Shown: piece after piece, positions 10,101 to 64,000 of the stretch
Layout of the letters: the number at the start of each line of letters is the position of its first letter
How positions within the stretch are numbered: position 1 is the stretch's first letter
Source: Paracyclopina nana
Taxonomy: Eukaryota; Arthropoda; Copepoda; Cyclopoida; Cyclopettidae
NCBI GenBank assembly: GCA_019096065.1
Contig: JAGUCH010000001.1
Location: 17,546,001-17,610,000 of the forward strand
Direction: 5' to 3'
Length of the DNA stretch: 64,000 bases
Translations under genes and position numbers: made by a program
The notes under the pieces: generated by a model
Seen by the model: the letters and a program-made list of their open reading frames with translations, nothing else
What the model was told of the DNA's origin: nothing
The model's database searches: none

Positions 10101-13100
10101 TTGGAGAGGAAATCACGTTTTGGCGAAAATGAATTAATGAAGCAGCACAAAGTAGGAAAGGAGTTTGAGTTCTCCTCGGTGGGGGAGATGATATCTTTGC
10201 TTAGTCTCGCAAAAATGGCTACACCCTTGGGCTATGTAGTGGTGCACTCCAAAATATGAGGTAGAAGAAGAAGGAGCAAGGGGAAAATCCTGGATTGCAT
10301 TGATTTCTTGCTCTCTCCCCTCCTCCTCCATAGTTATGATCCAGCAAACTTTAATGGTGATCATAATGATTAAAAAATATGTCGAACAATGGCAGTGGTG
10401 GTGGCTGAAACACCATGAAGCAGTCACCACACAGAAAATTTATTTAATGCTTTTTTGCTCAGGAAGCAATTTGAAGGAAATTTGCTGGGCTGGATTGCCT
10501 GTGGCATGGTTGCAAGTATGACTTCTTAGCGTACTGCAAGTGTCGCTGACCGCTTAGCCATGGCACATTTACTATGTCAATTTGTCTTTCAGGTGTGAGA
10601 GCACGAGATCCCAACACTAAAGATGGGCTTTTATTGGCCACCTCCCCTGTGGACATCTTTTGTTCAGTTCCTGGCAGGCTATCTCTTCTGAGTTCAACAT
10701 CAAAGTACAAAGTCACAGTGGCTGAGGTTCAGCGAAGGCTCTCCCCACCTGAGTGCTTGAATGCCTCTCTCCTAGGTGGAGTTTTAAGGAGGTGAGTGAT
10801 TGATGCCTTCATTAACCTTTCTTGTCACCTGCTGTAAACAACTATAGTGCTTTGAACAAGGCAGCTTCTGTGCTCTGAGCTCAATCAGATTTCTTCAACT
10901 TGTCAGCTATCTGGTGGGTCTTCTTCCACCAGCACAATTAGGGTAATTAAAATGCCTGCTGCAAGAAACAATTTTCAAAGATGGCAGCCAGTTCACCTCC
11001 TTATCACCAATTGGGGATCTCATCTCTCCATTTTTTCTTCCAAAAATAAATCAAGGGGTTCATTTGGGAGGCTTTGTTATCAGTGAAGGCGGATCTTGAT
11101 GAGCACTAGTTTTATTAATAAGGAAAAGCATGACTTGGCTACATTCTCTCATCTTTTCTCATTAGAGCAAAATCAAAAGATGGTGGACGCAATCTGAGGG
11201 ACAAGCTGGACAAGATTGGAATGGCTCTGCCAGCGGGAAGGCGCAAGGCAGCAAATGTCACCCTCCTCACCTCTCTGGTGGAAGGTAAGCCATTTTTGAC
11301 CACACTTTTATTTACTAATTGGGGGGTGGGGAGCAAAAGTTATTTTATGCATCTTGGCTCCAAACCCACTCTGAGTGGCCTTTTTGGCCCACCGCTTCCA
11401 AAAAAGAACGAGTGGCATGCCCCACCAGCCGCATTGAATGGAAACTGGACCATTCTATTTGGCAGTTATAATTTTGATTTACTGCCAGCCATGATGAATA
11501 ATGAGAGATTGTAATTAGTAGCAAACAAATAATGTGTGTGTGTGTGTGTGTGAGTATTGAGTCGTGAGAAAAATTTCTGTTGTTGCTGCTGCTGCTGCTA
11601 CTTGTTGTGGTTCACAACAACAAAAAAGTTACGACACGTGGACACGAAACCATACAATTTTGAAAGTTATTGAGGAAATGGTCGATCACACAAAAGCCTT
11701 TTTTAAACGCAAAAAAATTGACCTGTGGTAAACCAAGCCACCGAAGAAAAGTAGTTCACTCTCTCACGGAAATAACTGGCTCTCTTCTCTTTCTTTTTGT
11801 GACAAGATGAATGGCTGATTTGACAGATGGATGGCCATTAACACCTTGGCTAGTGGGGGGACACAAAGCGACAATTTACATATGCTGCTCACTTACACAA
11901 CGGTCAAACTGTCTTCTTTGCCTGTAACGCTTGTATCGGCTTGAAGGAGTGGAGTGAGGAGAAAAGTGCACAAAATAACTTTTGCTCACAAGGCCCACAT
12001 TAGTATAATAAAGTGGCCTCAGTTTTCCCCTAGCATGCTCAGGTGGGGAAATGAGTGGGGGGCTTATCGTTCTTTTTTTGCCACTTAATGACAACATGAC
12101 TTGCATCTTTGCCATTTTTCAGGTGAAGCCATCCACCTAGCCCGAGATTTTGGCTACGTGTGTGAAACCGAGTTCCCGGCCAGACAAGTGTCTGAGTATT
12201 TATGTCGCCAACACACTGATCCAGCCGAATTGTACAGGCGAAAGGAGCTCGTTTTGGCTACCAAGTAAGATTTCTACTTTTACAGTAAATAAAATAGGCG
12301 TGAGCCTAGCTGTGATGGATTGCATCCATCAAAATGTGATCCCCATACTTAAAAGGAGTCCAAACACATGATGGCAATCCCTCCCTCATTGGCTAGGCTC
12401 AGCTCGAAAAATGACCACACATGTGATTGTACTAGCTGGAATTCCAATGGGATTCGAATGACGATAGATGTGGCCTTAATGATATGGCGTGGCTGCTGCT
12501 TTTGGCCAACTGTGCATCCCAAAGATGGATGAACATTAAATGAGCCCCCAAAACAAAAAGATAACAAATATTCTCTGCTCTTTTCCAGGGTGATCACAAA
12601 AGAGTTGATGGACTTGCTGAACCAGGACAGGTCCCCCCTTTGCAACACCAGACCCCAGCAAATCCTGGAGCCTGGCATTCAGCGCCATCTAACGCATTTC
12701 TCACTCATCACACATGGGTTTGGGTCGCCTGCAATTGTGGCTGCTCTCACCGCAGTCCAGGTAATTGCTCTTCGCCTATATTTAGCTGAGCAATTTGCAT
12801 ATTTTCTGTCACCACCAGCACACAGCACAGCAGTCAGCCAGGATCAAAACACAATAGACTGTAGAGCCACCAATTTAAAACAATGGCTTCTTTCAATAGT
12901 ACACACACCCAAGACCTCAGGAATTTGAATTGAGAGTCAGTTAAGGCTGCTTTTCAGGCTGAGCAACTCGAACAGACAAGTTTAAGCCCTTGTGAATTGA
13001 AAATCTCTGAATATAAAATGATTGCTGGCGCTAAATTAAGAATAGTGGGTTCTAAACATATTTTCAAGTTTGCTAGCACTATTCTTAAGAGTCTAAGTGA

Positions 13101-13668
13101 ATCATTAGCTCAAGCGAAAACAGCCAAAAAGAACGCTAAAAGTGGGCTTGACTCAATTTGAAATTAAAACCCAAACAGACATTTTTAAGCCACGCAAAAT
13201 TGAAGATATCAAAATACAAACTCATTACTGGCTCAAAAGTGTGCTTTATAGGCTCTAAACATATTTCCAAGTGTTTTAACACCATTCAAAGCAGTCAAGG
13301 CTTGCAATCAACCCAAGCGAAACCTGCCAAAAAGAACGCTAAAAGTGTGCTCGACTCAATCCGATGCTGTGCTGGCTTTGTTTACATGATTTGAACAACC
13401 GCAATTTCCTGGCTGTAGTCATAATTTCTTCTCAGGGCAGTTCTGGGAAAACCAGGCATGCTCTAAAAGAGACGCGTGGCTTGATATGGGAATTTTGTGT
13501 CTCTTTCAGAACTACCTGAATGAAAGTCTCAAGTATTTGGACAAGTCCTACCCCAACACATCACTAGCTGGTCTCCATACGCCAATGTCTGACACGAAAC
13601 CGATTTACATCGACACCAAGGCGCTCTTGGGTCACCACGTGGACAGCAACAAGAACAACACGAAATGA
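7173..13668 (+). CDS. TFAP2: AP-2 transcription factor, gene A (9 coding exons)
   Basis: This nuclear transcription factor binds GCC-N3/4-GGC sites as a dimer. The exons are 7173-7190, 7592-7786, 7963-8091, 9603-9666, 10593-10791, 11166-11284, 12123-12264, 12589-12760 and 13510-13668. All have GT-AG borders and consistent phases, giving 398 residues. Exon 1 encodes only MTTAME. The activation region carries [11 protein letters not shown] (residues 26-36), nearly identical to vertebrate AP-2. IKRE (131-134) fits a sumoylation consensus. From [13 protein letters not shown] (156) onward the basic region and helix-span-helix are intact, including [36 protein letters not shown] and [15 protein letters not shown]. 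The tail has [10 protein letters not shown] and LLGHH, shared with gene B. Family assignment is certain. The start is inferred from the first ATG in a short exon next to a good donor, so other first exons may exist. Confidence 0.96.
9746..9779. repeat. 34-bp hairpin with CAAAGAGCTGACA arms
   Basis: CAAAGAGCTGACA (9746-9758) is followed by an 8-base loop and its exact inverted copy TGTCAGCTCTTTG (9767-9779). The same 13-mer or close variants recur at many other places in the window, so this may be the collapsed ends of a small element. It lies in intron 4 of AP-2 gene A. Confidence 0.75.
11533..11552. repeat. (TG)n microsatellite
   Basis: About ten TG dinucleotides run uninterrupted in intron 6 of AP-2 gene A, followed 30 bases later by a short CTG run. 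Confidence 0.95.
12959..13368 (+). repeat. tandem duplication with coding-like conservation, intron 8 of gene A
   Basis: Two diverged copies of about 200 bases lie head to tail (12959-13157 and 13158-13368). Both can be read in one frame and give similar peptides: the first has [19 protein letters not shown] and the second [20 protein letters not shown]. Both then continue GSKHI and end [11 protein letters not shown] or [11 protein letters not shown]. Many differences fall at third codon positions. The first copy follows a good acceptor (TGCTTTTCAG). It could be an alternative exon, a remnant of another gene, or an old coding element. No family is recognised. Confidence 0.5.
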
Positions 13669-15559: not shown

Positions 15560-16195
15560 GCACCTGGACAAAAAACTTTGCTCATAACAAACATATTCGC
15601 TCCGTAGCAAGAAACCTTCACTCCTTAGCAAAAAAACACTTCGCTCACAAACAATAAAACCTTTCTCACTTCTTCACTCTTTTGCGAATAACCTTCACTC
15701 CTAAGCAATATAATTCCTTCGCTCCTTAGAAAAAACCTTTGCCCACAAACTATGAAACCTTCGCTTCTTAGCAAAAACCTTCGCTCCTTAGCTAAAACCT
15801 TCGCTCATTATCAAGAAACCTTCGCTCATTATCAAGAAACCTTCGCTCATAATCAAGAAACCTTCGCTCATTATCAAGAAACCTTCGCTCGTTATCAATA
15901 AACCTTCGCTTATTATCAAGAAACCTTCGCTCATTATCAAGAAACCTTCGCTCATTATCAAGAAACCTTCGCTCATTATCAAGAAACCTTCGCTTATAAT
16001 CAAGAAACCTTCGCTCATTATCAAGAAACCTTCGCTCATTATCAAGAAACCTTCGCTCATTATCAAGAAACCTTCGCTCATTATCAAGAAACCTTCGCTC
16101 ATTATCAAGAAACCTTCGCTCAATATCAAGAAACCTTCGCTCATTATCAAGAAACCTTCGCTCATTATCAAGAAACTTTCGCTCATTATCAACAT
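15560..16195. repeat. 21-bp minisatellite (TTCGCTCATTATCAAGAAACC)
   Basis: The array is ragged at its start (15560-15780) and becomes very regular from about 15788 to 16195, with some nineteen copies of a 21-base unit. Because 21 is a multiple of three, one minus-strand frame stays open for 135 codons as a heptapeptide repeat (SEGFLIM). This is almost certainly a by-product of the period and not a gene. Confidence 0.92.
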
Positions 16196-16698
16196 CTAAG
16201 CTCCTTTATCTTATTATTTCATACTTTGAACAAACCTTTTATGCTTGGTTTTACATTCAGGCTCAATTGTTAGTGAAGATCACAAGTGGTAAAAATGGGA
16301 GCCTCTTCGCTCACGCTCAAAGGTTTTTCGTTCTTGTTGTTTGGCGATTCAACCCAAGCCGCTGCTTTAAAAGATTTTGCACTTAATCGTCTTTGCCGGA
16401 TGTGGACCATCAAGCAGAGCTTCAATTGACGAACTTTTGGTAGTGGAAAAGTAAAGCAGCGCACCTTTTCTTTTCATTTTTCCTTCATGCAGTCTATTGA
16501 CCCAATGTGGAGCAACAATTGTGGCTTTATGATGAAAAGGGAGTAGGACAAAAAAATGTAACAAATGATTCTGTTTCTTTATTATTGAATCAGTTCTGGT
16601 CCAATTTGTGAAGGAAAACTGGTTTTTAAACTTGTTTACCATACATAAAGGTTTGCTGCTCTCAGTAGTTGTTTTGAGGCTGTCAAAGTGGCTACACA
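16196..16698. other. non-coding stretch upstream of the CLIP-like gene
   Basis: This is unique sequence with no recognised gene. It should contain the promoter of the downstream secreted-protein gene, but no clear TATA or initiator was found. Confidence 0.4.
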
Positions 16699-17209
16699 AT
16701 GATCAAAATTGGCTTTTTACTGCTGCTGCTGTTGTTGTGCCAAATTGGCCTGATTCTCAGTGGAAAAATTATTTACCCCCAGGATTTGACGAGATTCTAG
16801 GAGGTGAGAGAGGAAACTAATATTCTATCTTTTCACAAGAGAAATGTCTCAATTTTCAGAAGAGGTCTCTAACAGGTTTTTAACCAGTGATTCTAAATTT
16901 GTTGAGTGTAAACAGTTGCAAGAATGCCCTGAAATGAATGATTGGGTGGATGAAAATCCTGATAACATCTACAGGCTGCTGCCCTGCTCCACTCACAGGG
17001 AGGGAATCCTGGTGGAAGAGGGCAACTTTTTGTGCCCTAATAAGAACTCAGGGCAAAAGGTGACCAAAATTGAGCTCAACTGCAATTGCATCCCTTTGAC
17101 TCAGTGCTCATTCCTCATGGAAGCCTTTGTGGCCTCCAAAGACTTGGCTGGCCTCCAAAAAGTGCCCATTTGTGACTTTGATCAGTGGATGCCCAAATAT
17201 TGCTGCTGA
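16699..17209 (+). CDS. small secreted CLIP-like protein (possible frame slip)
   Basis: An ATG at 16699 starts a strong signal peptide ([17 protein letters not shown]). A donor GAG/GTGAGA follows at 16804, and an acceptor TTTTCAG leads into an exon from 16861 to the stop at 17207-17209. That exon encodes about 115 residues with ten cysteines. Its second half (NCIPLTQCSFL, then VPICDF, ending KYCC) matches the spacing of a CLIP domain, and the first half looks like a second, diverged one. There is no serine protease domain, so it could be a stand-alone CLIP or binding protein. The signal-peptide frame meets a TAG just before the donor. The neighbouring frame (FDEILG, then EEVSN) joins the second exon correctly. 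A one-base slip in the A5 or C5 run near 16763-16780, or loss of the gene, would explain this. The call is likely for a host secreted-protein gene and uncertain for its integrity. Confidence 0.55.
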
Positions 17210-27540: not shown

Positions 27541-30179
27541 TTAACAGCTCCTGACTGTAAGCCACAGGCAATCCTGATACAAGGTTTCGGATTCGAAAAT
27601 CAGTTTTTTGGCCCAAATCCCTTGTAATGGTGTGAAAAGTACGAAAATTAAGTTTCATGACCACTGGACCACTCTAGGGTGGTCAAGTGGTGCGGTAAGC
27701 AAAAGGCTGTTTAGATTAAGGCAAAAATGAATGGGGGCCTAGCTGGAGGTGTGGGTATGGCCAGAAATCAACTATACCCTAATTATCTAGGCCCTGGGGG
27801 GGTCTCTAGGTGTCAGGGAAAAAAAGTTGAAAAACGTAAACAAACTAGTTGAAAAATGGCCAAAATTCACTTTTTCGGACCCTACTTTGAGGGCATTTTC
27901 CTTCCATGTCAGTGGATGGATTTTTGATTTTTCAACTCTGGATGAAAGTCAAAGATTGGAACTGTCATTACAAAAAAGAAAATTCATTATATGTCTGCAG
28001 ATGGAGCTCCTGGAGCGATTCAAAAATGCACATTTTTTACAAAAATGCCTTTACAGTAAAACAGATAAAACCGACAAGTGAAAGTGAAGTCATGGACAAA
28101 CTTATTTTTGTCATCACAAACATGTCAGTGCACACCCAGAGGCTTCTCCCAAACAAAAAAATTCAGGATACATAGGCCCTGCCCCTGGCCAGGAGCCTGG
28201 GCAGTCCCATTTATTCTCTGCTGCAGCAGCTACATAGGCCAACAGGGAGCCCCTGGCTCCCATGTCAGTGGATGAAAGTGTCCTTTTTCAGCCTCCTGAG
28301 GTCTGTGCTGGCCTGGAGGCTTGGGCCAAGCAAAAAAATTCAGGGTACATTGGCCCTGGCCTGGAGCCTGGGCGGTACCTGTTATGCTCTGCTACAGGAG
28401 GCTGAAAAAGGACACTTTCATCCACTGACATGGGAGCCAGGGGCTCCCTGTTGGCCTATGTAGCTGCTGCAGCAGAGCATAACAGGTACCGCCCAGGCTC
28501 CAGGCCAGGGCCAATGTACCCTGAATTTTTTTGCTTGGCCCAAGCCTCTAGGTCAGCACAGACCTCAGGAGGCTGAAAAAGGACACTTTCATCCACTGAC
28601 ATGGGAGCCAGGGGCTCCCTGTTGGCCTATGTAGCTGCTGCAGCAGAGCATAACAGGTACCGCCCAGGCTCCAGGCCAGGGCCAATGTACCCTGAATTTT
28701 TTTGCTTGGCCCAAGCCTCTAGGTCAGCACAGACCTCAGGAGGCTGAAAAAGGACACTTTCATCCACTGACATGGGAGCCAGGGGCTCCCTGTTGGCCTA
28801 TGTAGCTGCTGCAGCAGAGCATAACAGGTACCGCCCAGGCTCCAGGCCAGGGCCAATGTACCCTGAATTTTTTTGCTTGGCCCAAGCCTCCAGGCCAGCA
28901 CAGACCTCAGGAGGCTGAAAAAGGACACTTTCATCCACTGACATGGGAGCCAGGGGCTCCCTGTTGGCCTATGTAGCTGCTGCAGCAGAGCATAATAGGC
29001 ACCGCCCAGGCTCCAGGCCAGGGCCAATGTACCCTGAATTTTTTTGCTTGGCCCAAGCCTCCAGGCCAGCACAGACCTCAGGAGGCTGAAAAAGGACACT
29101 TTCATCCACTGACATGGGAGCCAGGGGCTCCCTGTTGGCCTATGTAGCTGCTGCAGCAGAGCATAATAGGCACCGCCCAGGCTCCAGGCCAGGGCCAATG
29201 TACCCTGAATTTTTTTGCTTGGCCCAAGCCTCTAGGCCAGCACAGACCTCAGGAGGCTGAAAAAGGACACTTTCATCCACTGACATGGGAGCCAGGGGCT
29301 CCCTGTTGGCCTATGTAGCTGCTGCAGCAGAGCATAATAGGCACCGCCCAGGCTCCAGGCCAGGGCCAATGTACCCTGAATTTTTTTGCTTGGCCCAAGC
29401 CTCTAGGCCAGCACAGACCTCAGGAGGCTGAAAAAGGACACTTTCATCCACTGACATGGGAGCCAGGGGCTCTCTGTTGGCCTATGTAGCTGCTACAGCA
29501 GAGAATAAATGGGACCGCCCAGGCTCCTGGCCAGGGGCAGGGCCTATGTATCCTGAATTTTTTAGTTTGGGAGAAGCCTCTGGGTGTGCACTGACATGTT
29601 TGGGATGACAAAAAAAAAGTTTGTCCATGACTTCACTTTCACTTGTCGGTTTTATCTGTTTTACTGTAAAGGCATTTTTGTAAAAAATGTGCATTTATGA
29701 ATCGCTCCAGGAGCTCCATCTGCAGACATATAATGAATTTTCTTTTTTGTAATGACAGTTCCAATCTTTGACTTTCATCCAGAGTTGAAAAATCAAAAAT
29801 CCATCCACTGACATGGGAGGAAAATGCCCTCAAAGTAGGGTCCGAAAAAGTGAATTTTGGCCATTTTTCAACTAGTTTGTTTACGTTTTTCAACTTTTTT
29901 TCCCTGACACCTAGAGACCCCCCCAGGGCCTAGATAATTAGGGTATAGTTGATTTCTGGCCATACCCACACCTCCAGCTAGGCCCCCATTCATTTTTGCC
30001 TTAATCTAAACAGCCTTTTGCTTACCACACCACTTGACCACCCTAGAGTGGTCCAGTGGTCATGAAACTTAATTTTCGTACTTTTCACACCATTACAAGG
30101 GATTTGGGCCAAAAAACTGATTTTCGAATCCGAAACCTTGTATCAGGATTGCCTGTGGCTTACAGTCAGGAGCTGTTAA
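27541..30179. mobile_element. 2.6-kb foldback element with TTAA ends
   Basis: The left arm (27541-28395) and the right arm (about 29430-30179) are nearly identical inverted copies. Both outer ends read TTAACAGCTCCTGACTGTAA when read inward. The inner part of the right side is expanded into seven 171-bp tandem units, while the left arm has about one and a half units in inverse orientation. TTAA at both borders fits the target-site preference of piggyBac- or Kolobok-type transposons, although the TTAA is also part of the palindrome. No transposase is visible, so the element is non-autonomous. High arm identity implies recent insertion or gene conversion between the arms. Confidence 0.88.
28396..29500. 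repeat. seven 171-bp tandem units
   Basis: Units begin with AGGAGGCTGAAAAAGGACAC at 28396, 28567, 28738, 28909, 29080, 29251 and 29422 (the last is partial). Differences are few (CTAGGTC, CCAGGCC and CTAGGCC variants; AACAGG against AATAGG), which shows recent amplification. The open minus-strand frame of 159 codons follows from 171 being a multiple of three and is not a gene. Most units carry GCC-N4-GGC, the AP-2 site class. Confidence 0.95.
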
Positions 30180-35932: not shown

Positions 35933-56605
<20,673 letters not shown>

Positions 56606-58797: not shown

Positions 58798-59744
58798 ATG
58801 CAAGGCTGTGCCATGAACTTCAAAGCTCACATTTTGGTAATAGCACTTGATTAACTCATTTAACTTTGAAAATACAATTTTTTAATAGATTTTAGTTGGC
58901 ATTTTGGTGGCTGCAACTCATGGTTTGGGCATTGGAGGGGCCACTTTGGCCTTCCCTGAAAAGCCTTTGATTACCAGGTCCAGGTGGGTTCAACCTGGGG
59001 GAGGCCTTATGTATTTCAGGGATCCTTCACCCAGCCATTTAAGGTACCCTACCAACAGCTACAAAACCAGGACTGAGGACCAAGACGATGAAACCAGATG
59101 GCACTGGTAAAAAAAAATATTAAGCTTTTAGTTATCGAAGAATTTAGCTAAGAACTGACAAACCGCATTTAAGCTTCTTCGCAACATTTCATCTTTGGTT
59201 GTCACGCAACTTTGTCAGAGTCCGCAACTCTTTTTGCTCAAAATTACTCGCAACACTTGGGAAAATGCATATTGTTTTTCCAATGTGGACATAGATCCAT
59301 GCGATTATTATGCGTCAATGATGTCATTTGATTATTATGCGTCAATGATGTCATGTCAGCTCTTAATTTGCGTATTTGAAAACTGAATCTTTTGCAGGAT
59401 TAGTAGAAAGGCCCAGGAATATGATGAAGAAAATGCGAGGAGGCCAACTTTTGAGAGCGCTGAAGTACTTCCAACGACCTCAAGGGTCATGGAGAGGTCA
59501 TCGGATGATAACAGTAATCCCTCTTTCGAGGCTGCTGAAAGTGAGGCTGAGAAGATCCTCAAAAATATCATGAGAAGAATCAATATGCTGCGCTCCAGAA
59601 AAAGGGAGATTTTCAAGTACTCTGATTACTTTTACTAGGAAATAATTCTTTATTAATATTTTTCTTCACAGGCCAAGTCAGCCAATGGAATTGACTGCTT
59701 CCAGTTTTGTGGGGCCCAAACCACCTCTTCTTATCATGGGATAA
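58798..59744 (+). CDS. secreted, probably amidated peptide precursor (4 exons)
   Basis: I do not recognise the family. The exons 58798-58836, 58889-59106, 59398-59616 and 59672-59744 have GT-AG borders and join in frame to 182 codons. The start may instead be the in-frame ATG at 58813. A signal peptide (AHILILVGILVAATHG) spans the first junction. The middle is acidic and hydrophilic. RKR at residues 153-155 is a prohormone-convertase site. It is followed by a 27-residue C-terminal stretch (EIFKPSQP to PPLLIMG) ending in Gly, so amidation would give LIM-amide. The 55-base last intron matches the size of an intron in the neighbouring ligase gene. If that intron is retained, the protein would end in KYSDYFY instead. 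Its 3' end faces that of the ligase gene 84 bases away. A neuropeptide or peptide hormone role is inferred. Confidence 0.6.
59303..59354. repeat. 25-bp direct duplication in intron 2 of the peptide gene
   Basis: Two exact copies starting GATTATTATGCGTCAATGAT stand two bases apart. Confidence 0.9.
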
Positions 59745-59784
59745 GCCAAAAATTAATTAACAGACACCACAGCAGACAAATTGT

Positions 59785-59790
59785 TTTATT
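59785..59790 (-). terminator. polyadenylation signal of the ATP-grasp gene
   Basis: On the minus strand AATAAA lies about 40 bases after the stop codon at 59829. It is also within 45 bases of the stop of the convergent peptide gene, so the two 3' UTRs probably overlap. Confidence 0.6.
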
Positions 59791-59828: not shown

Positions 59829-61724
59829 TTAGAGGACTTGACCCAGGCAAAAGTTGACCTTGTTCCATTTCTTGCCCTGCAGAGTAGCTTTCACCAATAA
59901 GTAAGGGATTTGCACGTAAATCAGGGCTAAAAATGGGAGAGGATCATCCGGCTTCCAAATTGCATCTTGGCCATGCTGGAGAGTGTCAATGAACGAGTCC
60001 AGGCTTTTGGCACCAGTCACAAGGTCAAAGCATTCATTGAAGAGCCAATAAATCTCTCTGGTTGATTTGGCGCTCACTGGCTGATCCACAAAGTCATTAT
60101 TCAACAGAGCACATCGAATGACTTTCTCTAATTCAGCCCTCTGCAATAAGAATTGACTTACTTACTACTCGATGACGTACTTTTATAAGCTGGAAAAGTC
60201 CATGACGAGCATTAATCTATGTTATGAATAGCTAAGAAACCATGATTTTTCCAAGTTGAGTGAGTAATCTTGGGTGCAACAAGTTGCGGATTCTGCTAAA
60301 GTTGTGAACAAATCAATTGTGAAATGTTGCGATGAAGTTAAAAGGCGTTTTGTCAGATGTTTCCTCGATGAAATTAGAAAGTCGATATGTATTCTCACCT
60401 GTTTGTCATCGCTGAAGTTGACGATGGCAGAGTGAAGCCTGGGATTACACTCAATGCAGTAGGCCACATTGGTCAACTTGTCCACCATGAAGTCGAAGCA
60501 GATCATGCCTGTGATATTCTTGGCTCTCACAAATTCAGTGACCCATTTCCGGATTCCGGAATGGTCAGCCACTCGGTAACTAATCTGAATTGGACTTGAA
60601 GGGCAGATCTGGAAGAGGAAACATTTCACACAAACATTTGCTTAAGACACTTGTCACAAAGACCTGGAGCATCAGGATGTGGCCATCTTTGCAAATGACA
60701 TTTGCAGCAAATTCCTTGCCATCGATGAACTCATTTAGCACATAGGGCACTGACAAGTCCTTTTTGCCCACGTGGCCTTTGAGGAAGGCCTCAAATTCAG
60801 CCTCGTCCGAAGGGATCCTGGTCAAGTCCAACCTCTCATCCCTCTGGAGCTCCAAAGGCTTGAGGAAGAAGTGCCTATCATGGAAAAGTCCCTGGTCCCT
60901 AAATTGCCTCAGGTCAGAGATCAAATTTGGAGCTGTTGAAAGTTGCCTGAAGTCAGGCACTTTCAAGTCCAATTCTTTGCAGTCATTCAAAAAGGTCAGC
61001 TTGTCATCCAAGGCCTCAGCCATTTGCACTGAAGTCAGTGCCAAGGAGTTGAAGATTCTGCCAAATTTCCTGGCTCCAGCCTCCATTCTCTCCTTGGCCT
61101 CAGTGTCCTCCACAGCCAGGTTAATGTGGCTGACAGGCAGGAACCAGTCCACATTTTCTGAAGCCCACAGCCTCACCAGACCTTCCACATAATCCGCCTT
61201 GGATCTGGCCTCCAGATTCACGAATTTGTGCACATATTGAGAGAATCGGGTGAAACTCAGCCCATCGGCTGGATCCTTGTCAGCCACAATCACCCTGTGT
61301 CCAGCTTGGCCCATAATTCTGGCAATTTGAAGAGCTGGGGGCAGAAAAATGATAATGGGTCAGACATTTCACCCAAAGCCTGTTGAAGGAATGACGGATC
61401 GGCTTTCTGGCCCTAGTTACCTTTGGTGAGGGGAGCTCCAGTGATCAAAACAGTTTTTCTCTCATTTTCAGGCAGGAATTGGGGCAAGGCAATTTCATTT
61501 CTCAGCTTGAGCTTCAGCCAGAGAGCCAAAGTGGCCAAAATGGTCAAAGGGGCTGACCAAAGGAGAGCAGTGAGCCAGAAAAAGGCCTGAAGCCTGCACT
61601 TCCACACCTTGAGCATGGCTTGCAAGCTGTTTTTGGCCTTTGCTGAGTGGCCAAGAGCTTCAGCTTGGTAAAAAGCTGCTTTATCTTTGGCACAGCTGAT
61701 CAACTGTTGTACTTGCTCACTCAT
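59829..61724 (-). CDS. MysC-like ATP-grasp ligase (4 exons)
   Basis: MysC ligates glycine to 4-deoxygadusol with ATP, making mycosporine-glycine, a UV-absorbing compound. The exons 61724-61421, 61334-60664, 60608-60399 and 60140-59829 have GT-AG borders and consistent phases and encode 498 residues, slightly longer than cyanobacterial MysC. There is an N-terminal membrane segment (about 48-70), as in bacterial MysC. ITGAPLTKALQIAR and GHRVIVADKD (about 94-122) match the start of its first domain, and LDDKLTF aligns with LDDKFAF. FFLKPLELQRDERLDLTRIP and VLNEFIDGKEFAANV hold the ATP-grasp lysine and the E-F-I-x-G-x-E loop. CFDFM and IECNPRLHSAI (ECNPR at 378-382) hold the metal-binding Glu and Asn. 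The end DAIWKPDDPLPFL matches the MysC C terminus. TATTTATG at 61763 reads as a TATA-like box. The substrate in this animal is unknown. Confidence 0.88.
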
Positions 61725-63207: not shown

Positions 63208-63574
63208 TTATATCAAGTTTCTGTAGTTCCACTCAGCAATTCCAGATCCTGGAATGCCATTGACTTGATAGTCTACAAAAAGCTCCACATTTTTGGCCTC
63301 GGATTTCTCGCCCAGGAAATGGGCTGCCCTGGCCTTGGCCTGTACACTTATGACGTACTCATGCCCACCTTCAAGAAAAATATTGATTTAAAAATATTAA
63401 CCATATGAATAAATTGCTACCAGCTTTGATGGAGAATGCGTATTGATCCGGAGGAGTTCCAGATTCACCATGATTGGCCAGGACCAAATCGCACTCATCA
63501 ATAGGTACCACTCTTCCGGATTTGCTGCTCACAAATCCGCATTCAAGCCTTAGATCGATAAGTTTTTTAGTCAT
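63208..63574 (-). CDS. unrecognised 104-residue protein (2 exons)
   Basis: Exons 63574-63421 and 63368-63208 join in phase 1 across a 52-base GT-AG intron. The product starts MTKKLIDLRLECGF and ends GIAEWNYRNLI. It has no signal peptide or membrane segment. Alternating hydrophobic residues (VISVQAKARAA, VELFVDYQV) suggest mostly beta strands. Three cysteines lie in the first exon product. The end G-x-G-x-A-E-W recalls the last strand of lipocalin-like barrel domains, but this is only an impression and the protein is shorter than such domains. Codon use resembles the neighbouring ligase. I do not recognise the family. The ATG is the first in the exon and the frame is closed just upstream, which supports the start. 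Confidence 0.6.
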
Positions 63575-63599
63575 TCAATTACAGCCTACAATACACATT

Positions 63600-63998
63600 T
63601 GATCTTCATCGAAACATTTCACTACACATTTTAACGTTGTTTCAGCAAAGTCTGCAGCCTATTTTGCTCAAGATTGCTCACAATCACTGAGAAAATCATG
63701 ATTTTTAATGCAATTGAAACATTGAATCATGCGATTGTCACAGCTTTTCAGCAATACTTTAAAAGGAAAGCGTTATTATGAAATATTGCATTGTTGTCTG
63801 CTCTTTGTGGATAGGCTTTCGCTGTAATGAATTGCCTTATGCAAGTGTGTGGCTGTCACACGATTCTGGAAACAATCGACTTTCGAGCCTCATCAAAACA
63901 TTTCACTACACATTTTAATGTAGTTTCAGCAGAGTCTGCAGCTTATTTTGCTCAAGATTGCTCACAATCACTGAGAAAATCATGATTTTTAATGCAAT
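63600..63998. repeat. ~105-bp direct repeat, 284 bp apart
   Basis: The segment with AACATTTCACTACACATTTT through GCTCAAGATTGCTCACAATC to TGATTTTTAATGCAATTG occurs at about 63612-63714 and again at 63895-63998, with few differences. A much more diverged relative (CGCAACATTTCATC, TTTTGCTCAAAATTACTCGC) lies at 59180-59270 in intron 2 of the peptide gene. The array may continue past the window edge. Confidence 0.85.
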
Positions 63999-64000
63999 TG

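What the first reader, a model, noticed from the sequence alone, without database searches (positions are those of the whole stretch)
59829..61724. MysC-like sunscreen-type ligase encoded in an animal, probably arthropod, genome
The protein aligns by eye with cyanobacterial MysC along its whole length, including the membrane anchor, ATP-grasp core, ECNPR metal site and C-terminal DDPLPFL motif. It has three GT-AG introns and eukaryotic flanks. MysC homologues are known in bacteria, algae, fungi and cnidarians; arthropods are thought to take these compounds from food. A resident copy suggests horizontal transfer or unexpected retention, and a possible role in making or modifying a UV screen.
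Basis: partly seen in the sequence, partly recalled or inferred. Interest (0 to 1): 0.8.

Follow-up and report, generated by a model that had tools for sequence, protein, structure and literature searches.

The report
Animal gene for a MysC-type ligase
An animal genome, probably an arthropod's, carries an intact, intron-containing gene for a distant relative of MysC, the enzyme that bacteria use to build a natural sunscreen, so the animal may be able to make or alter such compounds itself, although this has not been shown.

Summary
A four-exon gene (- strand, 61724-59829) encodes a 498-residue protein with three GT-AG introns and AATAAA 39 nt past the stop. It belongs on the MysC side of its ATP-grasp family. 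A profile of 30 bacterial proteins from sunscreen loci scores it 268 bits, against 115 for a profile of 19 relatives with no sunscreen gene in the flanks held. The tree groups it with MysC at 100/100 once three long or partial rows are dropped, and at 87/91 before. It has a MysC-type hydrophobic N-terminus and C-terminal tail, and the ATP-grasp residues that I can name. It is very diverged: about a third identical to any bacterial MysC, with 22 of 56 MysC-diagnostic positions kept.

The host is an animal: two AP-2 genes share the window. Arthropod is likely from a weak CLIP match, not proven. No EVS, O-methyltransferase or MysD relative lies in the window; no host genome is held. Reading: a resident, old or fast-evolving MysC-family ligase, probably joining an amino acid to a cyclohexenone such as 4-deoxygadusol. 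Substrate and origin are open. The papers I saw report MysC in animals for anthozoans only.

The parts
61421..61724 (-). exon 1 of the MysC-like gene, from ATG; encodes the N-terminal hydrophobic segment and the start of the ATP-grasp domain
   Evidence: gene model
61509..61586 (-). hydrophobic segment, about residues 47-72 (putative membrane anchor)
   Evidence: best 19-residue hydropathy 1.68; 30 of 30 MYS rows and 1 of 21 NON rows pass the same >1.6 test; residues checked
61335..61420 (-). intron 1, 86 bp, GT-AG
60664..61334 (-). exon 2, N-terminal and central ATP-grasp subdomains (K213, K260, E309)
60609..60663 (-). intron 2, 55 bp, GT-AG
60399..60608 (-). exon 3, C-terminal ATP-grasp subdomain (FDF, ECNPR)
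60438..60452 (-). ECNPR motif, residues 378-382
   Evidence: role as metal/ATP site recalled
60141..60398 (-). intron 3, 258 bp, GT-AG, in-frame stops; carries one copy of a dispersed repeat
   Evidence: (I15)
59829..60140 (-). exon 4 with stop TAA; MysC-type C-terminal tail
59928..59948 (-). DDPLPFL motif, residues 460-466
59785..59790 (-). AATAAA polyadenylation-type signal, 39 nt after the stop
59150..59266 (+). copy of the repeat found inverted in intron 3 (74% complementary)
   Evidence: I15, D13
63588..64000 (+). two further copies of the same repeat
   Evidence: D13
10595..13665 (+). DNA-binding-domain exons of an AP-2 transcription-factor gene (host marker); borders by eye
35936..46815 (-). 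DNA-binding-domain exons of a second AP-2 gene, opposite strand (host marker); borders by eye
16808..17206 (+). exon with a CLIP-like cysteine pattern (arthropod hint)
   Evidence: Pfam CLIP E 0.017, 15.8 bits, below the cut-off of 20

Best explanation
A resident gene of an animal, most likely an arthropod, encodes a divergent MysC-family ATP-grasp ligase, probably anchored to a membrane by its N-terminus. By kinship with MysC, the enzyme would use ATP to activate the enol or keto group of a cyclohexenone (4-deoxygadusol or gadusol type) and join it to the amino group of an amino acid, giving a mycosporine-type UV absorber. Shown: gene structure, family side, kept ATP-grasp residues, animal context. 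Inferred: membrane topology, the reaction itself, and the source of the cyclohexenone (food, symbiont, or genes elsewhere in the genome). The many changed MysC-specific residues make a shifted amino acid or ring substrate quite possible.
For: Intact 498-codon frame over four exons with a polyadenylation-type signal. MYS profile 268 bits against NON profile 115 bits; each of 19 NON rows prefers NON, and each of the 4 MYS rows tested (of 30) prefers MYS, when left out. MYS plus query form one side of a branch, 100/100 with 49 rows and 87/91 with 52 rows. Of the 80 loci fetched by the genome scan, 75 hold a MysA or MysB relative (74 both; 62 hold a MysD relative); in four of the five others the match lies within 0.9 kb of a locus end, the fifth is L069. 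The query keeps 22 of 56 MysC-diagnostic positions against 0-8 of 53-55 in 20 NON rows; it keeps 25 of 32 family-wide positions, including K213, K260, D364, E378, N380 and R382; E309 is among the kept diagnostic ones. Hydrophobic N-terminus in 30 of 30 MYS rows, 1 of 21 NON rows, and in the query. The AlphaFold model of a bacterial MysC (L005, mean pLDDT 85) is an ATP-grasp fold whose nearest solved structures are PurK, a carbamoyl-phosphate-synthase-type protein and L-amino acid ligases.
Against: 34 of 56 MysC-diagnostic positions have changed; three bacterial MysC proteins left out of the set keep 46 of 61, 55 of 57 and 55 of 57; 7 of 32 family-wide positions have changed too. End branch 2.98-3.45 substitutions per column. 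NF005315 scores the query 213 bits, below its 406 cut-off and below two non-sunscreen relatives at 333 and 364. The hydropathy peak of 1.68 is at the low end of the MYS range, 1.67-3.04. No pathway partner lies in the window. No expression or enzyme data.
Confidence: 0.6

Rival explanations
1. Repurposed MysC descendant: an old animal gene of MysC origin that kept the ATP-grasp chemistry but now joins other partners (for example another enol, acid or amine) and has no part in sunscreen metabolism.
For: 34 of 56 MysC-diagnostic positions lost and a long branch; no partner genes within 64 kb.
Against: MysC-only residues and the anchor and tail layout are kept (D178, D211, T273, S330, Q333, Y336, H384, Y426, W427, E431 and W487 among the 22). 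Animal genes of one pathway need not cluster.
Confidence: 0.3
2. The host is a cnidarian, where MysC is already known, so the gene is expected.
For: MysC homologues are reported in Acropora and Nematostella (PMC3640398 and PMC4426668, passages); AP-2 is not limited to arthropods (recalled).
Against: CLIP-like exon at 16808-17206 (weak); arthropod-looking AP-2 wording (recalled, not tested).
Confidence: 0.07
3. Chimeric contig or contaminant: the last 6 kb comes from an alga, fungus or other eukaryote.
For: No strong repeat joins 57.5-64 kb to 1-56 kb; the best shared stretch is 27 bp at 89%, E 0.007.
Against: The tetranucleotide profile of the last tenth is typical (mean correlation 0.889; range of the ten pieces 0.876-0.917). 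The repeat in intron 3 also lies on both sides of the gene. GC of the bins beside the gene, 0.37 and 0.36, is ordinary for the window; the bin with the exons has 0.45.
Confidence: 0.06

Closest known systems
MysC (ATP-grasp, 4-deoxygadusol to mycosporine-glycine) of cyanobacteria and actinobacteria
   Same: Family side in tree and profiles, hydrophobic N-terminus, ATP-grasp core, ECNPR, DDPLPFL region, and W487, F492 and G495 of the C-terminal tail.
   Different: 29-35% identity in the scan, 34 of 56 diagnostic positions changed, four exons in an animal genome, no mys neighbours in the window.
Anthozoan ATP-grasp homologues (Acropora, Nematostella)
   Same: MysC homologue in an animal genome, reported with the other three pathway genes (PMC3640398 and PMC4426668, passages).
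   Different: Sequences could not be compared here; the host here is probably not a cnidarian.
Non-sunscreen ATP-grasp proteins of NCBIfam NF005315 (PRK06849)
   Same: Same family-wide ATP-grasp residues.
   Different: 1 of 21 passes the hydrophobic N-terminus test; no mys neighbours in the flanks held; different tail; the query scores 115 bits on their profile against 268 on the MysC one.
Vertebrate gadusol pathway (EEVS and MT-Ox)
   Same: Animal-encoded cyclohexenone sunscreen metabolism, suggested to be horizontally acquired (PMC4426668, passages).
   Different: Makes gadusol with two enzymes; the term ATP-grasp has 0 occurrences in the text held.

Membership tests
MysC | groups with proteins of sunscreen gene clusters rather than with other ATP-grasp relatives | tested here: met
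   tree support 100/100 (three rows dropped) and 87/91; profiles 268 v 115 bits
MysC | ATP-grasp catalytic residues | tested here: met
   K213, K260, E309, D364, E378, N380, R382 kept; roles recalled; 7 of 32 family-wide positions changed
MysC | N-terminal hydrophobic segment before the ATP-grasp domain | tested here: met
   1.68 against threshold 1.6; MYS 30 of 30, NON 1 of 21; bacterial start codons were not checked
MysC | family-specific conserved positions | tested here: inconclusive
   22 of 56 kept; above the NON rows (0-8 of 53-55), below three left-out MYS rows (46-55 of 57-61)
MysC | score above the NCBIfam NF005315 cut-off | tested here: not met
   213.1 against 406 bits. The model gives 333 and 364 bits to two non-sunscreen proteins, 399.9 to one with mys neighbours and passes two proteins without mys neighbours (418.6 and 432.6 bits), so it does not define MysC
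MysC | genes for EVS/DHQS-like synthase and O-methyltransferase in the same cluster (bacteria) or genome | tested here: inconclusive
   none in the 64-kb window; no genome held
MysC | ligates glycine to 4-deoxygadusol | not testable with these tools
   needs an enzyme assay

The most novel reading that the evidence does not exclude
An arthropod has its own MysC-type ligase, held in its genome long enough to gain introns and to diverge widely, and uses it to turn dietary or self-made gadusol-type rings into its own UV screens or eye filters. Arthropod mycosporines would then be partly home-made, not only eaten.
Probability: 0.3. Interest if true: 0.8.

Novelty: new member of a known kind. Interest (0 to 1): 0.52.

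Why it matters
Mycosporines in zooplankton are explained by diet or symbiotic bacteria, and synthesis by the animals had not been shown there when that was reviewed (PMC7073964, 2020, passages). [quoted passage not shown] A resident MysC-type gene outside that group makes synthesis or salvage by a bilaterian directly testable with one enzyme assay and one genome search. If the function has shifted, it is a case of a sunscreen ligase recruited to new animal chemistry.

Tried and rejected
Unrelated ATP-grasp family: rejected by profile, tree and diagnostic-site tests. Recent transfer from one bacterial group: not supported. Query held with cyanobacteria gives p-AU 0.382; query held with actinobacteria gives p-AU 0.537 and a likelihood 3.02 higher than the free search, so that search was not exhaustive; the basal place has only 70/92. 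Viral or phage carrier: no relative in viral contigs with the two-protein alignment or with exon 2 alone, none in phages. Partner genes in the window: no MysA match at E 10, MysB best E 3.2, MysD best E 1.4. Host by RNA genes: no Rfam family and no tRNA (bacterial-code search) in the window. Host by other protein domains: of the 252 frames of at least 60 residues listed, 242 were scanned with Pfam (count) and 10 were not. Apart from AP-2, only CLIP (E 0.017), HTTM (0.0044) and four families at 0.001 to 0.007 came up at or near E 0.01, all at chance level but CLIP. Solved structure of MysC by sequence: none. Literature: ten searches showed no arthropod MysC in their listings; five of them listed only part of a larger or slightly larger result (30 of 36; 25 of 647; 25 of 176; 15 of 17; 15 of 10,048, uninformative). 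The terms ATP-grasp and mycosporine do not occur in the main text held of PMC13389597 and of the HGT compendium PMC13342648; supplements could not be read.

Full report
WHAT IS THERE. On the minus strand, exons 61724-61421, 61334-60664, 60608-60399 and 60140-59829 join to 498 codons ending in TAA. Introns of 86, 55 and 258 bp start with GT and end with AG; 86 and 55 are not multiples of three, and the third holds stop codons in frame, so the frame exists only after splicing. AATAAA lies 39 nt past the stop. GC of the coding sequence is 0.48 and GC3 0.58; six frames around the AP-2 exons have GC3 of 0.46-0.60, though those frames include intron sequence.

WHICH FAMILY. NCBIfam gives NF005315 (PRK06849) at 213 bits, E 6e-63, under its cut-off of 406; Pfam gives ATP-grasp_3 at E 2e-4, just under its cut-off. 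NF005315 covers two kinds of bacterial protein: MysC proteins and relatives without mys neighbours. It gives 333 and 364 bits to two of the latter, more than to the query, and passes two others (418.6 and 432.6 bits; loci L146 and L145), so it cannot decide. A tblastn of 72,556 plasmid records found 9 with a match: Nostoc sp. HK-01 at 32% and E 6e-49, the other eight at E 1e-14 to 3e-9. The Nostoc gene follows genes annotated as 3-dehydroquinate synthase and O-methyltransferase and stands, with one other gene between, before a D-Ala ligase-like gene, as in a mys cluster.

A scan of genome contigs returned the best 80 of 321 related stretches, at 29-35% identity. Of these 80 loci, 75 carry a MysA or MysB relative, 74 both, 62 a MysD relative (over 50 bits). 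The five without A or B are L026, L046, L053, L070, whose match lies within 0.9 kb of a locus end, and L069. NF005315 searches of 149, 292 and 296 genomes, drawn by phylum, found 7, 43 and 9 genomes with a match at E 1e-15 or better; fifteen further stretches were fetched. Thinning at 72% identity left 51 of 155 open frames: 30 with at least one mys neighbour in the locus (MYS) and 21 with none (NON). For nine NON rows (L093, L094, L133-L137, L149, L150) the locus is only 3.8 to 6 kb long, so absence of neighbours is weak there.

BLASTP of the query gives 155-216 bits to the 30 MYS rows; of the 21 NON rows, 16 get 47-86 bits and five no hit. Profiles of each group give the query 268 (MYS, 30 rows) and 115 (NON, 19 rows; L137 and L147 dropped as very long or partial). 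In leave-one-out controls the four MYS rows tested score 575-621 v 191-226, and all 19 NON rows prefer NON. The query is thus on the MysC side but far out.

TREE. With 52 rows the query joins the 30 MYS rows at 87/91, on an end branch of 3.45. With L137, L147 and L093 dropped (49 rows) the split is 100/100, the query is basal to the 30 MYS rows at 70/92, and its end branch is 2.98. The program warns that long branches meet. Holding the query with 15 cyanobacterial rows (p-AU 0.382) or with 14 actinobacterial rows (p-AU 0.537; likelihood 3.02 better than the free tree) is not rejected. So no donor is indicated, and an old presence or fast evolution is likely; without eukaryotic MysC sequences retention and transfer cannot be told apart.

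RESIDUES. Of 32 positions shared by both groups the query keeps 25, among them K213, K260, D364, E378, C379, N380, P381 and R382; seven differ. Of 56 positions conserved in MYS but rare in NON it keeps 22; three MYS rows left out keep 46 of 61, 55 of 57 and 55 of 57, and 20 NON rows keep 0-8 of 53-55. Changed positions include Y, H, T, N and T of MysC at query positions 264, 313, 315, 335 and 383, here L, N, I, S and L. This fits a MysC descendant whose ring or amino acid pocket may have shifted. The hydrophobic N-terminus passes the same test as 30 of 30 MYS rows, near its lower limit (1.68; MYS 1.67-3.04).

FOLD. A bacterial MysC (L005, 17 sequences in the alignment) was modelled at mean pLDDT 85, pTM 0.86, with a long N-terminal helix at residues 9-47. 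Foldseek lists PurK, a carbamoyl-phosphate-synthase-type protein, L-amino acid ligases and biotin carboxylases; TM-scores by query length are 0.39-0.57 in the 50 rows shown. No solved structure is found by sequence at E 0.01 for the MysC profile, and none of use for the query. The query itself was not modelled.

HOST. The window holds two AP-2 genes on opposite strands. The joined DNA-binding domain of one matches the PDB entries for AP-2-beta and AP-2-alpha at E about 1e-106. An exon at 16808-17206 matches the CLIP domain weakly, 15.8 bits against a cut-off of 20, with the C-x5-C ... C ... CC pattern that I recall for it; CLIP domains are known from arthropods (recalled). A repeat in intron 3 recurs at 59.15 kb and twice at 63.6-64 kb, on both sides of the gene. 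The tetranucleotide profile of the last tenth is not an outlier. No strong repeat links this end to the first 56 kb, so a chimera is unlikely, not excluded.

HOW IT MOST LIKELY WORKS. MysC converts 4-deoxygadusol and glycine to mycosporine-glycine with ATP (established knowledge). The kept ATP-grasp residues suggest an active ATP-dependent ligase; the N-terminal segment suggests that it sits on a membrane. I infer that it joins an amino acid to a cyclohexenone. [quoted passage not shown]

PRINT. Only passages were read: PMC3640398 (among metazoans the shinorine genes only in anthozoans), PMC10142268, PMC7073964, PMC9298759, PMC9394291, PMC4426668, PMC4083563; PMC13389597 and PMC13342648 gave no passage. 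The listings of the ten searches show no arthropod MysC (calls and their limits in Tried and rejected); subscription journals are mostly not held.

VERDICT. A real, resident and probably functional MysC-family gene in an animal, probably an arthropod; reaction and origin open.

Noticed in passing
window 10595-13665 (+) and 35936-46815 (-): Two AP-2 transcription-factor genes lie tail to tail in one 64-kb window; one exon stretch of 173 nt is 82% alike (I10), so they look like an inverted duplication.
   Followed up: partly
window 27541-30179: Inverted repeat with 569-bp arms, 99% complementary, around a tandem array of 171-bp units (copies 93-100% alike), GC 0.51 in the 28-30 kb bin.
   Followed up: no
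window 15711-16276, 24428 onward, 49443-49943, 44066-44345: Several minisatellites with 20- or 21-bp spacing; the one near 15.8 kb is open in at least four reading frames.
   Followed up: no
window 58889-59745 (+): What looks like a small spliced gene of unknown family, ending about 85 bp from the stop of the MysC-like gene, tail to tail; exon borders judged by eye.
   Followed up: no
window 63211-63574 (-): Apparent two-exon frame of unknown family; no Pfam match for either half.
   Followed up: no
L086, L091, L092 (genome G005); L104, L152 (genome G322); L110 (genome G352): Some cyanobacterial genomes carry two or three MysC-type copies, in part side by side.
   Followed up: no
L138-L147, L149, L150: NF005315 proteins of cyanobacteria without mys neighbours in the flanks held form a sister group of unknown function; two of them pass the family cut-off, so NF005315 hits should not be read as sunscreen genes by default.
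   Followed up: partly
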